NCBI RefSeq assembly: GCF_001006305.1
Contig: NZ_LBHJ01000012.1
Location: forward strand, 1 to 64,000
Length of the DNA: 64,000 nucleotides
Direction: 5' to 3'
Source: Silvibacterium bohemicum
GTDB taxonomy: Bacteria; Acidobacteriota; Terriglobia; Terriglobales; Acidobacteriaceae
Numbering within the stretch: the first letter of the stretch is position 1; the number at the start of each line of letters is the position of its first letter. Positions 41,325 through 45,648 of this stretch are shown here, in pieces. The position numbers were made by a program, and so were the translations under genes. Under the pieces are notes generated by a model, which had not been told where the DNA came from, did not search any database, and saw only the letters and a program-made list of their open reading frames with translations.

Positions 41325-41631
41325 GACAAAAGCGCCCTTCAGGGACGGAACTCATCATGGCCTCGCTTTGCAGCCCTGCCTTATCGACTCGCCTTGTGGC
41401 TTGACTTCGTCTTGGAAGCGTACGACCCTACAGGCCGTGCGTGAATGGGGCTCAGGTTGCTGACAAAGCACTGGTTTGGGGTAGATACGGCCTTCACGCC
41501 ATGTGTAAAGCAGGTGAAATCGCCGTGGCTTTAGCCGCCGAGGGGAAACCCCGCTCGCCAAACAAGGTTGGTCATGATCTGGCAGCGGAGACAAAGGGCC
41601 TCAGCCCTGGAACGAGGAAATTCGGATCAGC
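41325..41631. other. Intergenic region between convergent genes
   Basis: No gene supported; open frames here lack protein-like composition. It holds a CTTTAGCCGCCGAGG / GGGCCTCAGCCC type hairpin stretch (about 41525-41615), similar in text to the GGCTTCAGCC elements elsewhere. Confidence 0.5.
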
Positions 41632-42168
41632 CTAGAGAGCTGCAGCCAGGCGCGGATGAAGTCCCGCATGATTCGCCTCGTAGAGGCAGAGCAGCCGGCG
41701 CAGCATCAGGTAATAAGACGATGCGACCTGGTGCAGATAAAAAGGAAAACGGATCGGACGGCGATGCAGGGTAGCGTCGAACTTGATGCGGAAAAGAGCC
41801 CGCTTGAGCATGATCGCGTCTTGCCGCATGCGTTCCGCCACGATGGCGGCTTCGACCATGTTCCAGCGGCTGGCATAGGCGGCCAACGCAATCATGATGT
41901 CGGCATTCTGCTTCATGCGCCGCAGACCCTCCGGCCCGCCCAGCAGAGCCCACATATCACCCGGCTCGATTTGCAGCTGATGCCCATGCGGATCGATGTG
42001 GTCCAGAGCAACCAGCTCCAGTCCGCGGAAATGGACTGGCTGAAGCATCTGCAGTAGGTCGTCCCACTCCTTATCGCGGAGCTGCGTGACACCCTTCATC
42101 GACCAGAGAAGAGTGGCCCCGGTTGCGAGGACGGTACCGCCGGCGACGATAAGGTAGGGAAGGCTCAT
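41632..42168 (-). CDS. Membrane-anchored protein of unknown function
   Basis: A 178-residue protein. One N-terminal membrane helix (about 4-24, YLIVAGGTVLATGATLLWSM) is followed by a mainly helical, Met- and Arg-rich soluble part (WDDLLQMLQPVHFRGLELVA; then a long helical stretch with AAYASRWNMVEAAIVAERMR). No catalytic motif is evident. Its ATG overlaps the stop of the seven-helix gene by 4 nt, so the two are translationally coupled, and both lie downstream of the peptide-gene array on the same strand. Possible partner of the seven-helix protein (inference). Confidence 0.7.
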   Translation of the reverse strand: MSLPYLIVAGGTVLATGATLLWSMKGVTQLRDKEWDDLLQMLQPVHFRGLELVALDHIDPHGHQLQIEPGDMWALLGGPEGLRRMKQNADIMIALAAYASRWNMVEAAIVAERMRQDAIMLKRALFRIKFDATLHRRPIRFPFYLHQVASSYYLMLRRLLCLYEANHAGLHPRLAAAL

Positions 42169-42953
42169 GAGGACCGTCGCGAATCGGAGCGACTAACCAA
42201 CTTGTCGACATAGTAGCCGAGCTGACGCTGCTGTTCAACCAAAAACTTGTGTCTTTCCGGTGAAACCACGCGGCTAGGCTCTTCCTGCCAGAAAATGAAA
42301 ATCCAAAAGCCTAGAGCAACCAGATTCGCGAGATCCCCTACATATTGCAACCGCTGATAGAGGGTGGTATAGCCCAAATAACTATGAAAGGTCTCTACAA
42401 CGAAAGTAATGAAGGCCCACATCGTCCAACCTTGGGCCAGCCCTATGACGTGATTGCGCCACGCCAGGCCATACTGACGAGCTGTAACAAGAACGGCAAT
42501 CGAGATCATGCAAGTTAGCATGATTGCAAACAGCTTGCCCTTGATCACCCATGCCCAGGTGTAGGTGGGGGCATGGGGACTGGCAATGAAAGTCAGCCCG
42601 AGCGCCGCAACCAGGCTGATTCCACATGCTGCCACCCAGAACGAACGCGCGCCGGATGCCCATCGGCCGAAGGGGCGGAATACCTGACGGGCAATTTCTA
42701 CAACGACGGCAATTTGAAGAACGAACTCAATGGCTTGGCCGATCCAAAAGGCATAGGAATACAGGCTCTGATCTTTGAAAGCAAAAAACAGAACAATGTT
42801 TTGGAGCGCGTCAAATCCTATCAGCGTCGCGAAAAACGGGAACTGACGCGCCCTCTTCTTGCCTATCAGGACGGCGAATAAAGCCGCGAAGGCAGAAAAT
42901 CCGGCGATCCACAGCGCCACGTCTTTCCAGGTGAGGCCCATGGCTAATAGCAT
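42165..42953 (-). CDS. Seven-helix membrane protein of unknown function
   Basis: A 262-residue protein with seven predicted membrane helices (about 10-30, 38-57, 66-86, 104-124, 137-157, 168-188, 207-226) and a charged 35-residue cytoplasmic tail rich in Arg and Ser. Trp and aromatic residues are common in and near the helices (TYTWAWVIKG, GWTMWAF). It has no rhodopsin lysine motif and no transporter signature that I recognise. The start may be 42953 or the ATG at 42941. Only 49 nt separate it from the last of seven tandem peptide genes, with no hairpin between, so co-transcription with the peptides is likely. Confidence 0.75.
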   Translation of the reverse strand: MLLAMGLTWKDVALWIAGFSAFAALFAVLIGKKRARQFPFFATLIGFDALQNIVLFFAFKDQSLYSYAFWIGQAIEFVLQIAVVVEIARQVFRPFGRWASGARSFWVAACGISLVAALGLTFIASPHAPTYTWAWVIKGKLFAIMLTCMISIAVLVTARQYGLAWRNHVIGLAQGWTMWAFITFVVETFHSYLGYTTLYQRLQYVGDLANLVALGFWIFIFWQEEPSRVVSPERHKFLVEQQRQLGYYVDKLVSRSDSRRSS

Positions 42954-43002
42954 GAACCATCAACTCAACCGTAGTACAGGTAATTCCGCCAGAACTGTCT
43001 GC

Positions 43003-43125
43003 TTAACCTCGCAGCACGCCTGGCGGTAACGGCTCGGGCGCAGTGATCAACGAGGCGTAGGAAGTTGCGGCGAAGCCGGCCAGAATGGTAGCGGCGAGGA
43101 CCAGATTGCGAACGATCTTGTTCAT
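43003..43125 (-). CDS. Tandem secreted peptide, copy 7 (last in array)
   Basis: A 40-residue product: MNKIVRNLVL, then AATILAGFAATSYA, then a tail of 16 residues, SLITAPEPLPPGVLRG. The basic start, hydrophobic core and SYA form a textbook Sec signal with probable cleavage after Ala24. Ribosome binding site GGAG 7 nt before the ATG. It is closest to copy 6, differing only in Ala-Val to Thr-Ile inside the signal. The seven-helix gene follows after 49 nt. Confidence 0.8.
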   Translation of the reverse strand: MNKIVRNLVLAATILAGFAATSYASLITAPEPLPPGVLRG

Positions 43126-43188
43126 AGTGAATCTCCAAATATGAAGTGAGTTCGAGATGCTTGGGTTGAGTGACAGCCGAGAAACGAC

Positions 43189-43311
43189 TTAGCCCCGCAG
43201 CACGCCTGGCGGTAACGGCTCGGGCGCAGTGATCAACGAAGCGTAAGAGGTTGCGGCGAAGCCGGCCAGAACGGCGGCGGCAAGGACCAAATTGCGAACG
43301 ATCTTGTTCAT
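43189..43311 (-). CDS. Tandem secreted peptide, copy 6
   Basis: A 40-residue product with the signal MNKIVRNLVLAAAVLAGFAA ending TSYA and the tail SLITAPEPLPPGVLRG. The spacer to copy 5 is nearly the same as that between copies 6 and 7. GGAG precedes the ATG at 7 nt. Confidence 0.82.
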   Translation of the reverse strand: MNKIVRNLVLAAAVLAGFAATSYASLITAPEPLPPGVLRG

Positions 43312-43375
43312 AGTGAATCTCCAAATATTGAAGTGAGTTCGAGATGCTTGGGTTGAGTGACAGTCTAGAAACGAC

Positions 43376-43498
43376 TTAGCCCCGCGAAACACCCGGCGGC
43401 AAAGGCTCCGGCGCAGTCATCAACGAAGCGTAAGAGGTTGCGGCGAAGCCAGCCAGAACAGCGGCGGCAAGGACCAGATTGCGGACGATCTTGTTCAT
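43376..43498 (-). CDS. Tandem secreted peptide, copy 5
   Basis: A 40-residue product. The signal is identical to that of copy 6. The tail is SLMTAPEPLPPGVSRG, differing at Ile-to-Met and Leu-to-Ser. Relative to copy 4 the tail codons differ at several third positions, yet the protein is identical, which is direct evidence of coding constraint. Confidence 0.82.
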   Translation of the reverse strand: MNKIVRNLVLAAAVLAGFAATSYASLMTAPEPLPPGVSRG

Positions 43499-43560
43499 AG
43501 TGAATCTCCAAATATTTATCGAGTCGAAAACGTTGCGTTGAACAGCAGTCTAGAAATGGT

Positions 43561-43683
43561 TTAGCCCCGCGAAACGCCCGGCGGCAGCGGCTCTGGCGCA
43601 GTCATCAGCGAAGCGTAAGAGGTTGCGGCGAAGCCGGCCAGAACGGCAGCGGCAAGGACCAGATTGCGAACGATCTTGTTCAT
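43561..43683 (-). CDS. Tandem secreted peptide, copy 4
   Basis: A 40-residue product identical in protein sequence to copies 3 and 5, with synonymous differences (for example CCAGAGCCGCTG against CCGGAGCCTTTG in the PEPL codons). Tail SLMTAPEPLPPGVSRG. GGAG precedes the ATG at 7 nt. Confidence 0.82.
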   Translation of the reverse strand: MNKIVRNLVLAAAVLAGFAATSYASLMTAPEPLPPGVSRG

Positions 43684-43745
43684 AGTGAATCTCCAAATAT
43701 TTATCGAGTCGAAAACGTTGAGTTGAACAGCAGTCTAGAAACGAT

Positions 43746-43868
43746 TTAGCCCCGCGAAACACCCGGCGGCAAAGGCTCCGGCGCAGTCATCAGCGAAGCG
43801 TAAGAGGTTGCGGCGAAGCCAGCCAGAACAGCGGCGGCAAGGACCAGATTGCGAACGATCTTGTTCAT
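43746..43868 (-). CDS. Tandem secreted peptide, copy 3
   Basis: A 40-residue product with the same protein sequence as copies 4 and 5. Its leader differs from that of the downstream copies: GGGAGACTCATC precedes the ATG, and the spacer to copy 2 has different text. Confidence 0.82.
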   Translation of the reverse strand: MNKIVRNLVLAAAVLAGFAATSYASLMTAPEPLPPGVSRG

Positions 43869-43928
43869 GATGAGTCTCCCGTTTGCTTAAACAACATTGA
43901 TTGTTGAATTGAATTCCCAAAGAACGAC

Positions 43929-44051
43929 TTAGCCGCGCGGCATTCCTGCGGGCATCGGCACCGGAGCGGTAATCAGGCTGGCAAAGGACGCGCCGCTGAA
44001 ACCGGCAAGCATGGTGGCGGCGAGAACGACGTTGCGAACAATCTTGGTCAT
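43929..44051 (-). CDS. Tandem secreted peptide, copy 2 (divergent)
   Basis: A 40-residue product, MTKIVRNVVLAATMLAGFSG then ASFA and the tail SLITAPVPMPAGMPRG. It is the most divergent member but keeps length, signal plan, SL-x-TAP, the spaced prolines and the final RG. GGGGAGAATC precedes the ATG. Confidence 0.8.
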   Translation of the reverse strand: MTKIVRNVVLAATMLAGFSGASFASLITAPVPMPAGMPRG

Positions 44052-44118
44052 TTTGATTCTCCCCGTGCTGGGTCGAAGTGATGTCAAATGCAATGGTTAG
44101 GAATAGCCTACAAACGAG

Positions 44119-44241
44119 CTAGCCGCGCGAAATACCCGGTGGCATCGGCTCTGGTGCACTGACCAGCGAAGCGTAAGAGGTTGCGGCGAAGCCGGCCAGG
44201 ACGGCGGCGGCAAGGATCAGGTTACGGGCGATCTTGTTCAT
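44119..44241 (-). CDS. Tandem secreted peptide, copy 1 (first in array)
   Basis: A 40-residue product, MNKIARNLILAAAVLAGFAA, TSYA, and the tail SLVSAPEPMPPGISRG. It ends in TAG rather than TAA. AAGGAG lies 7 nt before the ATG, the strongest ribosome binding site of the set, as expected for the promoter-proximal gene. Confidence 0.82.
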   Translation of the reverse strand: MNKIARNLILAAAVLAGFAATSYASLVSAPEPMPPGISRG

Positions 44242-44685
44242 GGAAAGCTCCTTGTTGATTGCATTTTTGAAGCAGGTGCGTGCTGAACAGGCAGGTCGGG
44301 CGCCCGCCTTATGGTCTTTCAGCATAAGTCGTTTAGGTATTGGCCGGTAAGAGTGAAACGAAACACTTTGGTTACATCCGTGTGGACTGGATTCCGCACT
44401 ACCTTCTGCATGAGAGATTCCCCCCGGGCGGTAACGCAACCAATGTTGTATAGAGCCTATGCTGTCTGGATTGCTTCGACAATAAAATGATGCAAGTAAG
44501 TTGCATCTAAGTAGTTTTTTGCAAAGTACACCTGCTTTTAAAGGCAGATACAACTTGTTGTGGGTGACTAAGTCCATTTCCCTGCAGCCAATTTCGGATC
44601 CATCCCACGGTAACCAGCGGCCTCGATCAGGCTTCTGCCGGCCTCGGCTCCTCTTCCCCAGTGAGATAATCGAGACATCCGAAAG
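44242..44685. other. Upstream region of the peptide array (divergent from dsbA-like gene)
   Basis: No gene supported. It has lower GC than the surroundings around 44440-44530. It holds a perfect inverted repeat at 44489-44507 (described separately). Promoters for the array (leftward) and the DsbA-like gene (rightward) must lie here. The array-proximal 250 nt could be a long leader. Confidence 0.5.
44489..44507. promoter_or_regulatory. Perfect inverted repeat, candidate operator
   Basis: GATGCAA (44489-44495), spacer GTAAG, TTGCATC (44501-44507). Seven-bp arms with a 5-nt spacer suit a dimeric regulator. It lies about 250 nt from the first peptide gene and 180 nt from the DsbA-like gene, in an A/T-richer patch. 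No regulator gene is adjacent. Confidence 0.4.
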
Positions 44686-45648
44686 GTGGCTGGTTTGTCT
44701 CGAATCCGACTCATTTTTGTCTGCCTGCTGGCCGTGGCCGCGGCAGGCTGCAAGGCACAAACAAACCCGGTTGCGGCGGGCAGCCCTGTCGACCGGGAGA
44801 CCGCACGCAAGATCGAAGTGCTGGCCCGGGAAAAGCTGAAAGTTCCTACCGAGTATGTGGTTACCGTCGGACAGCGCAGCCCCGGCGAAATCCCCGGCTT
44901 CGACAAAGTCAATGTCACCTTCTCGCTCCCTGGACATGCCGACCACACCCAGACCCTTTCTTTCCTGATATCAAAAGATGGCCAGACCCTGGCACGGCTC
45001 TCCGAGTGGAACATCGCGAAGAACCCGGCCGACCTGGTCCCCTACGCCAACCGGCCGGTGCGCGGAAACCCTGACGCCAAGGTAGTGATCGTCAACTTCG
45101 ATGACCTCGAATGCCCCTACTGCGCCAAGATGCACGCCGAGCTCTTCCCGGACACTCTGGATCATTACAAAGGGCTCATTAAAGTGGTGTATCGGGACCT
45201 GCCCCTCGAAGAGCTGCATCCCTGGGCAATGCACGCCGCCGTCGACGCCAACTGCCTGGCCTCCCAGAACGCTTCGGCCTATTGGAGTTACGTGGACTAT
45301 CTCCACGTCCATGGCGAGGACGTCACCGGGCCGGACCGGAATCTGGTGAAGGCCAACGCCACCCTCGATAAGCTGGCCACCCAGCAGGGCGTGAAGAGCG
45401 CGCTCGATGCCGCCACACTCAGCGCCTGTGTCGCAAAACAGGACGAAACCGCGGTCCGCTCCGAGGTCAAGCAGGCCGAGGACCTCGGCATCGAACAGAC
45501 GCCCACCCTCTACGTCAACGGCGAGCAGATGCAGGGTGCTCTGGATGTCTCCACGCTGTGGACCATCATCGACCGCGCCCTGGTCTCGGAGGGAGTCACC
45601 CCACCCGCTGCCCCCAAGCCGCCGGAGCCGGCCAAGCAGGGTAACTGA
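44686..45648 (+). CDS. DsbA-family thioredoxin-fold lipoprotein
   Basis: A 320-residue protein. A signal with lipobox AAAGC puts the lipid-modified Cys at 22. Residues 33-110 form a separate N-terminal domain. The thioredoxin-like DSBA domain follows, with FDDLECPYCAKMH (active Cys143-Pro-Tyr-Cys146) and the cis-proline segment EQTPTLYVNGEQMQG. CPYC with an inserted helical domain is typical of DsbA/DsbG-like oxidoreductases with one or two domains. It acts in the periplasm, perhaps in disulfide formation or isomerisation. The start is GTG at 44686, or TTG at 44695, which sits better relative to AGGTGG. Confidence 0.85.
   Translation: MAGLSRIRLIFVCLLAVAAAGCKAQTNPVAAGSPVDRETARKIEVLAREKLKVPTEYVVTVGQRSPGEIPGFDKVNVTFSLPGHADHTQTLSFLISKDGQTLARLSEWNIAKNPADLVPYANRPVRGNPDAKVVIVNFDDLECPYCAKMHAELFPDTLDHYKGLIKVVYRDLPLEELHPWAMHAAVDANCLASQNASAYWSYVDYLHVHGEDVTGPDRNLVKANATLDKLATQQGVKSALDAATLSACVAKQDETAVRSEVKQAEDLGIEQTPTLYVNGEQMQGALDVSTLWTIIDRALVSEGVTPPAAPKPPEPAKQGN

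What the first reader, a model, noticed from the sequence alone, without database searches (positions are those of the whole stretch)
43003..44241. Seven tandem genes for near-identical secreted proline-rich 16-residue peptides
Seen: seven 41-codon units, same strand, 60-67 nt apart, each with its own GGAG-type ribosome binding site. Each protein is exactly 40 residues with a Sec signal ending SYA or SFA and a tail of pattern SL-x-(T/S)-AP-x-P-x-P-x-G-x-x-RG. Copies 3-5 are identical as proteins but differ by synonymous codons, so the peptide is under selection. Downstream copies are recent, upstream ones older. This looks like gene-dosage amplification of a signalling, antimicrobial or envelope-active peptide. 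I know no described family with this motif.
Basis: partly seen in the sequence, partly recalled or inferred. Interest (0 to 1): 0.88.

Follow-up and report, generated by a model that had tools for sequence, protein, structure and literature searches.

The report
Secreted peptide repeats with seven-helix partner
Seven near-identical genes for a tiny secreted proline-rich peptide turn out to be one case of a widespread, apparently undescribed gene cassette in a family of soil bacteria, in which many copies of a short peptide are made beside one seven-helix membrane protein that looks like its receptor.

Summary
In detail: seven 40-codon genes, minus strand, 43003-44241, 60-67 nt apart, each with its own ribosome site, under purifying selection. 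The next two genes are constant partners: B (42165-42953), a seven-helix membrane protein, and C (41632-42168), one helix plus a cytoplasmic domain; neither matches Pfam or NCBIfam. B homologues occur in 130 of 150 sampled genomes of the bacterial family and in none of about 266 sampled outside it. A small secreted peptide gene (A) lies just upstream of 63 of 67 close and 61 of 73 distant B genes, against 60 of 280 controls; with P-x-P required, 58, 47 and 9. A varies greatly but is often multiplied, as 2-7 tandem genes or about 4-26 repeats in one precursor. A helix-turn-helix gene adjoins 22 of 121 B genes, not the window's. Best reading: peptide signalling, A ligand, B receptor, C adaptor. 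Shown: anatomy, linkage, selection. Inferred: signalling. No structure was obtained; no experiment is known to me.

The parts
44119..44241 (-). A gene 1 (first in transcription): MNKIARNLILAAAVLAGFAATSYA|SLVSAPEPMPPGISRG
   Evidence: cleavage mark is my estimate
43929..44051 (-). A gene 2, most diverged copy: tail SLITAPVPMPAGMPRG
43746..43868 (-). A gene 3: tail SLMTAPEPLPPGVSRG
43561..43683 (-). A gene 4: same protein as gene 3, synonymous differences only
43376..43498 (-). A gene 5: same protein as gene 3
43189..43311 (-). A gene 6: tail SLITAPEPLPPGVLRG
43003..43125 (-). A gene 7 (nearest to B): tail SLITAPEPLPPGVLRG
42165..42953 (-). B: 262-aa membrane protein, seven hydrophobic segments, N-out/C-in by positive-inside rule; starts 49 nt after A gene 7. 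The family's invariant first residue is Met 5, so the true start may be 42941
41632..42168 (-). C: 178-aa protein, one N-terminal membrane helix and a domain predicted cytoplasmic; overlaps B by 4 nt (ATGA)
   Evidence: topology is my reading of the sequence

Best explanation
The seven genes are the ligand part of a lineage-specific peptide signalling cassette. Each A protein is exported by the Sec route and, after loss of the signal peptide, releases a peptide of about 16 residues with an xPxP core. B, a seven-helix inner-membrane protein with its N-terminus outside, binds the peptide on its variable outer face. Its conserved cytoplasmic face passes the signal to C, a membrane-anchored cytoplasmic protein, and in part of the family to a BldD-like helix-turn-helix protein (D) encoded next door. 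Amplifying A, as tandem genes here or as internal repeats elsewhere, raises peptide output against one B and one C. Shown: anatomy, linkage, equal numbers of B and C in the own genome, purifying selection, repeated amplification, topology signals. Inferred: release of the free peptide, its binding to B, the direction of signal flow, self-sensing.
For: A lies within 400 nt upstream of 63 of 67 close and 61 of 73 distant B genes against 60 of 280 control genes; with a P-x-P tail required 58 of 67, 47 of 73 and 9 of 280. C adjoins 53 of 56 close B genes and follows B in 26 of 26 named loci; the own genome has 5 C for its 5 close B genes (in one cassette C lies in front of A). Close and distant B are homologous (profile comparison 99.8%) and so, more weakly, are C and the gene found in its place behind 18 of 75 distant B genes (89.8%); two control pairs gave 0.2%. 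Two ways to the same end: 21 precursors with internal repeats and tandem A arrays of 2-7 in the window, G066, L083, L114, L115, L117, L120, G013, L254, L255, L256; parsimony needs 10 changes of architecture among 63 labelled B proteins (quick tree). Loops taken as cytoplasmic are more conserved than outer loops (2.28 against 1.34 bits, p = 5e-7; K+R 11.1 against 3.6 per protein; loop limits set by eye). D lies beside 7 of 56 close and 15 of 65 distant B genes; the own genome has 4 D proteins, 3 of them next to cassettes.
Against: No kinase or other known signalling domain in 26 B and 26 C proteins (Pfam). The window has no D match and 99 of 121 B genes have none beside them. Faster outer loops are common in membrane proteins. 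A and B descend together, so matched peptide types do not prove binding. No structure was obtained. 4 of 67 close and 12 of 73 distant B genes lack A by the loose rule, and a group of the latter has a promoter-like block instead. One clade has tiny exported peptides without P-x-P. A search for a common A-x-A cutting site between repeats failed (5 of 20 units, shuffled mean 6.7).
Confidence: 0.5

Rival explanations
1. B is a membrane enzyme or translocase that processes, anchors or moves A, in the manner of AgrB or an exosortase, with C as its helper; A is then a substrate with an envelope role.
For: A-B linkage; many A proteins outside the window carry a hydrophobic C-terminal stretch after the xPxP core, such as GGNPHPQVASVALSLGDYASIVISVFGL. 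Glu 86, Trp 165 and His 168 of B are invariant in the 26-row alignment.
Against: No invariant Cys in B, which AgrB and exosortases need (recalled). The most conserved loops lie on the predicted cytoplasmic side, away from an exported substrate. Window tails and most repeat precursors end without a hydrophobic stretch.
Confidence: 0.2
2. A is a bacteriocin-like peptide and B with C give immunity.
For: Diverse A-B pairs, up to six B genes in the own genome; small secreted peptide beside a membrane protein.
Against: Neutral tails; no bacteriocin family hit (no antimicrobial library was searched); conserved loops of B point inwards; HTH gene beside 22 of 121; a B homologue in 130 of 150 family genomes, which fits poorly with an arms race.
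Confidence: 0.12
3. A is a structural or binding repeat of the envelope, the short genes being a fragmented form of it.
For: Long Pro-rich repeats in some loci.
Against: The window, G066, L083, L114, L115, L117, L120 and G013 make the unit as separate proteins of about 39-59 residues, each with its own signal peptide, so the single unit is enough.
Confidence: 0.1
4. The A genes are leader peptides that control translation or transcription of B through ribosome stalling at Pro-rich codons.
For: Position just upstream of B; PPG codons near the C-terminus in six of the seven window copies.
Against: In G013 three A genes follow B and no further B was seen within about 4 kb behind them; in G006 an A-like gene also follows B. 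Up to 26 repeats or 7 genes are not needed for stalling. Signal peptides are kept.
Confidence: 0.04

Closest known systems
Ascomycete alpha-factor pheromone precursors with cognate receptors (passages read in PMC10182648; that the receptor is a seven-helix GPCR is recalled)
   Same: Signal peptide followed by several near-identical short peptide repeats, or several gene copies, proposed there to give enough pheromone; seven-helix receptor
   Different: Bacterial; no sequence relation tested or claimed; no processing site between repeats identified here (A-x-A rejected); receptor role of B not shown
Peptide quorum sensing with XRE-type regulators (RRNPP, Rgg/ComR) (recalled)
   Same: Short exported peptide; HTH regulator nearby in part of the family
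   Different: There the peptide is imported and binds the regulator; here the constant partner is a seven-helix membrane protein and the regulator is optional
Agr and ComQXPA systems (recalled; ComQXPA make-up also in the abstract of PMC4008528, listing)
   Same: Small peptide gene linked to polytopic membrane proteins; variable peptide types
   Different: No histidine kinase found in B or C and no peptide-modifying enzyme recognised in the cassette
PEP-CTERM / exosortase (recalled)
   Same: Exported proteins with a Pro-x-Pro motif, some with a following hydrophobic stretch, and a multi-helix membrane partner
   Different: No invariant Cys in B; no basic C-terminal cluster after the hydrophobic stretch in the A proteins that I looked at

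Membership tests
Agr-type system | Membrane protease AgrB with conserved His and Cys | tested here: not met
   No invariant Cys among 26 B proteins or 13; no AgrB model among Pfam matches at E <= 1
Agr-type / ComP system | Histidine kinase sensor in the cassette | tested here: not met
   No kinase domain among Pfam matches at E <= 1 of 26 C and 26 B proteins
RRNPP / Rgg quorum sensing | HTH regulator with peptide-binding (TPR-like) domain beside the peptide gene | tested here: inconclusive
   The D profile finds nothing in the window, but the window's other genes were not scanned for HTH. Of seven HTH proteins beside other cassettes three pass a Pfam HTH cut-off and none matches a TPR model at E <= 0.1
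Exosortase / PEP-CTERM | Active-site Cys in the membrane partner | tested here: not met
   No invariant Cys; no exosortase model among Pfam matches
Bacteriocin with immunity | Peptide kills strains without the partner genes | not testable with these tools
   Only indirect: neutral charge, no family hits above cut-off
Seven-helix peptide receptor | Seven helices, N-out, C-in | tested here: met
   By hydropathy only: seven hydrophobic segments, and K+R 11.1 inside against 3.6 outside over 74 B proteins, loop limits set by eye; no structure
Seven-helix peptide receptor | Fold shared with known seven-helix receptors | tested here: inconclusive
   Structure job accepted and not finished; no PDB sequence match better than E = 7.6
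Seven-helix peptide receptor | Binds the peptide and triggers a response | not testable with these tools
   Needs experiment
Ribosome-arrest leader peptide | ORF precedes the controlled gene | tested here: not met
   Met in the window and most loci, but in G013 three A genes follow B

The most novel reading that the evidence does not exclude
Bacteria of one family have evolved their own form of multi-copy peptide hormone with a seven-helix receptor, with several parallel channels per cell, built from protein families unrelated to any described signalling system, and analogous to fungal pheromones and their receptors.
Probability: 0.42. Interest if true: 0.95.

Novelty: categorically new. Interest (0 to 1): 0.85.

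Why it matters
Named relatives are Edaphobacter, Granulicella, Acidipila and other Acidobacteriaceae, common in acidic soils (recalled), and none of the paper lists that I saw deals with peptide signalling in them. If the reading holds, it adds a new kind of bacterial receptor and ligand, explains repeated evolution of tandem genes and internal repeats as selection for ligand dose, and gives many natural ligand-receptor pairs that can be tested with synthetic peptides. Even if the function is another, three linked families without a library entry, kept across a bacterial family, deserve a name.

Tried and rejected
Array alone as the unit: a scan of genome contigs with the A profile found no relative. 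In 300 family genomes clear matches besides the own genome lay only in G066 and, weaker, G013. That table was capped; of the 28 other loci looked at most were other reading frames or signal-peptide resemblance and were dropped, save those (for example L017, L019, L022, L025) where a B gene later proved to lie beside them.

Common cutting site between repeats: A-x-A was no more frequent than in shuffled units (5 of 20 against a mean of 6.7). Rejected.

Earlier control counts are superseded: one search used a smaller set, and one search counted newly fetched B genes as controls. One search replaces both; in one of its 9 strict control hits (L211) the counted ORF is B itself.

Four of the 67 close B genes scored as lacking A (named): two (L089, L094) had a candidate under the looser rule, one (L092) follows a second B, one (L169) is unexplained. 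L081, L136 and L159 carry imperfect repeats but were labelled 'single' in the tree; 7 of its 70 rows had no label.

Family searches: window B and C match nothing at E <= 1 in Pfam or NCBIfam. Among 26 relatives of each, scattered weak Pfam matches in at most 3 members (best 1.3e-4 for B, Cation_ATPase_C; 0.0015 for C, DUF6249; cut-offs not shown in those tables) and, for B, NCBIfam best 0.0033; relatives of C were not run in NCBIfam. Ten distant B: none in Pfam at 0.01. Ten A proteins: two NCBIfam matches, both below cut-off. One window A copy had one NCBIfam match far below cut-off. PDB by sequence: B best 7.6, C best 0.26.

Downstream neighbours of C (61 listed) were judged by eye only: mixed housekeeping genes, 13 of them aldo/keto-reductase-like, three the HTH protein D. 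Promoter and terminator scans of 41500-44720 gave no more than shuffles. Of 23 candidate C-like genes behind 75 distant B genes 5 were dropped by eye before the profile comparison.

Papers: eight searches on the cassette and one on the fungal analogue; capped listings seen, plus passages of PMC10182648. No listed title or abstract start describes the cassette; subscription papers and preprints are mostly not held.

Full report
The observation. The seven ORFs are there as described, on the minus strand. They are repeats at the DNA level, have their own ribosome sites, and evolve under purifying selection: pooled pN/pS 0.23, and the three middle genes differ at nine sites without one amino acid change. 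The claim that downstream copies are recent holds for the middle three but not for the last, which is also diverged at synonymous sites. The own genome has no further close copy. Three of the seven proteins were scanned; Pfam has nothing and NCBIfam one match far below cut-off.

What lies next to it. Downstream in the same direction, 49 nt after the last copy, is a 262-residue membrane protein (B, 42165-42953), and overlapping it by 4 nt a 178-residue protein with one membrane helix (C, 41632-42168). Upstream and divergent is a DsbA-like lipoprotein. In the same-genus genome G066 the same place holds four copies of a related 39-residue peptide (tail GLCTAPPPTPHGLRK; one copy has an N and no readable tail), then B at 58% identity and C.

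B led to the family. Paralogues of B in the own genome and its genus, nearly all that have enough sequence upstream, have a small secreted Pro-rich gene just in front, with quite different tails: GTDPEPTSP followed by a hydrophobic stretch, or long runs of GPSAPAPLPPPAFA, SPATPRPLPPPAVAFA, VTGSDPMPKSKGGLTT. C adjoins in most. With a profile of close B proteins, 130 of 150 sampled genomes of the family match. In a phylum sample of 297 genomes 25 match with that profile and 30 with a profile of distant B proteins, all labelled same family; 31 genomes of the family appear in the printed rows, so about 266 are outside it and none of them matches. Unmatched rows were not all printed, and at most 8 candidates per genome were scored. 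A named collection gave 26 loci, titled Acidobacteriaceae, Edaphobacter, Granulicella, Acidipila, Acidobacterium, Silvibacterium, Acidobacteria, and one Bryobacterales MAG; C follows B in 26 of 26. The window's genome itself is unnamed; its family is inferred from these relatives.

Counts. Of 155 distinct B genes, 140 had at least 600 nt upstream. A small ORF with ribosome site and crude Sec signal lies within 400 nt upstream in 63 of 67 close and 61 of 73 distant ones, against 60 of 280 other genes from the same loci; with a P-x-P tail and at most 260 residues, 58, 47 and 9 (Fisher p = 2e-46 for the close group). In 59 close-group peptides with the motif, the residues before P-x-P are G in 36, then G, T or S in 44, then D or N in 28. 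C adjoins 53 of 56 close B genes and 1 of 65 distant ones; behind 18 of 75 distant B genes another one-helix protein stands in its place, probably a remote homologue (profile probability 89.8%).

Copy number. The peptide is multiplied in two ways. Tandem genes: 7 in the window, 4 in G066, 6 in L117, 3 in L083, L114, L115, L120 and G013, 4 in L254, 2 in L255 and L256. Internal repeats: 21 precursors with units of mostly 14-24 residues, about 4 to 26 units. On the B tree the architecture changes at least 10 times among 63 labelled rows; L083 (three genes), L025 (about ten internal repeats) and L088 (single) form one small group. This argues that the single short unit is the active product and that its amount is selected. 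Fungal alpha-factor precursors show the same dual pattern, and the same reason has been proposed there (PMC10182648, passages).

How B is built. Seven hydrophobic segments; K and R favour the loops that put the N-terminus outside and the C-terminus inside. Over 74 close B proteins the inner loops are far more conserved than the outer ones (2.28 against 1.34 bits, p = 5e-7; loop limits set by eye), with E86, P94, W165, N167, H168 and E225 among the most conserved residues. This suits a protein with a variable ligand side and a constant partner inside, though fast outer loops are common in general.

A regulator nearby. In the GTDPEP subtype, six of six loci with enough flank have a convergent gene for a helix-turn-helix protein (D) right behind B or C. 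D resembles PDB entry 2ewt (E = 3e-6; BldD as I recall) and, in 5 of 6 members, the NCBIfam BldD model far below its cut-off. D has only four members in the own genome, three of them at cassettes. In the distant group D lay upstream of A on the same strand in 12 of 14 cases. In all, D is beside 7 of 56 close (one of them a fragment) and 15 of 65 distant B genes. The window has no D match.

Interpretation. The simplest account of a variable, multiplied, exported peptide, a seven-helix protein with a constant inner face, a membrane-anchored cytoplasmic partner and an occasional transcription factor is signalling by a secreted peptide. Enzyme or translocase, immunity, structural and leader-peptide readings are weighed above; the leader reading fails on gene order in G013. 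I put the signalling account at 0.5 because no structure was obtained and nothing is known of expression.

Limits. Signal peptides were called by a simple rule; many genomes are drafts and some precursors hold N runs (L098, L162; one G066 copy). B and A are inherited together, so their matching types are no proof of binding. Literature silence rests on eight searches of an open-access library with capped listings.

Noticed in passing
L178, L180, L185, L186, L189, L190, L193, L198, L200 (weaker: L118/L228/L263, L179): Distant-group B genes without a true A gene have instead a conserved block of about 100 nt, in most behind what looks by eye like a CBS-domain gene, with GGTAAC/GTTACC half sites and TTGACC, like an operator and promoter.
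   Followed up: partly
L099, L164, L171: One clade of close B genes has tiny exported peptides without P-x-P, such as ...AHASPLQYLLDVWRLG, so the xPxP core is not universal.
   Followed up: no
window 44686-45648 and G066: A DsbA-like thioredoxin lipoprotein lies divergent to the array; strong matches (E < 1e-120) in 8 of 9 genomes of the genus, the own included. The same neighbourhood was checked only in G066.
   Followed up: partly
L092/L172 (G033), L096 (G144), L098 and L125 (G008): Some loci carry two B genes in a row, as if the receptor part is also duplicated.
   Followed up: no
L008 1677-1790, L098, L162: N runs fall inside peptide genes or repeats of other genomes, so repeat numbers there are lower bounds.
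   Followed up: no
G000:C16:610597-611349 (L267): A sixth B gene of the own genome, of the distant type, with its own peptide gene ending AGMPAPLCSPATCNIRGGK; many peptides of that type hold two Cys near the end.
   Followed up: partly
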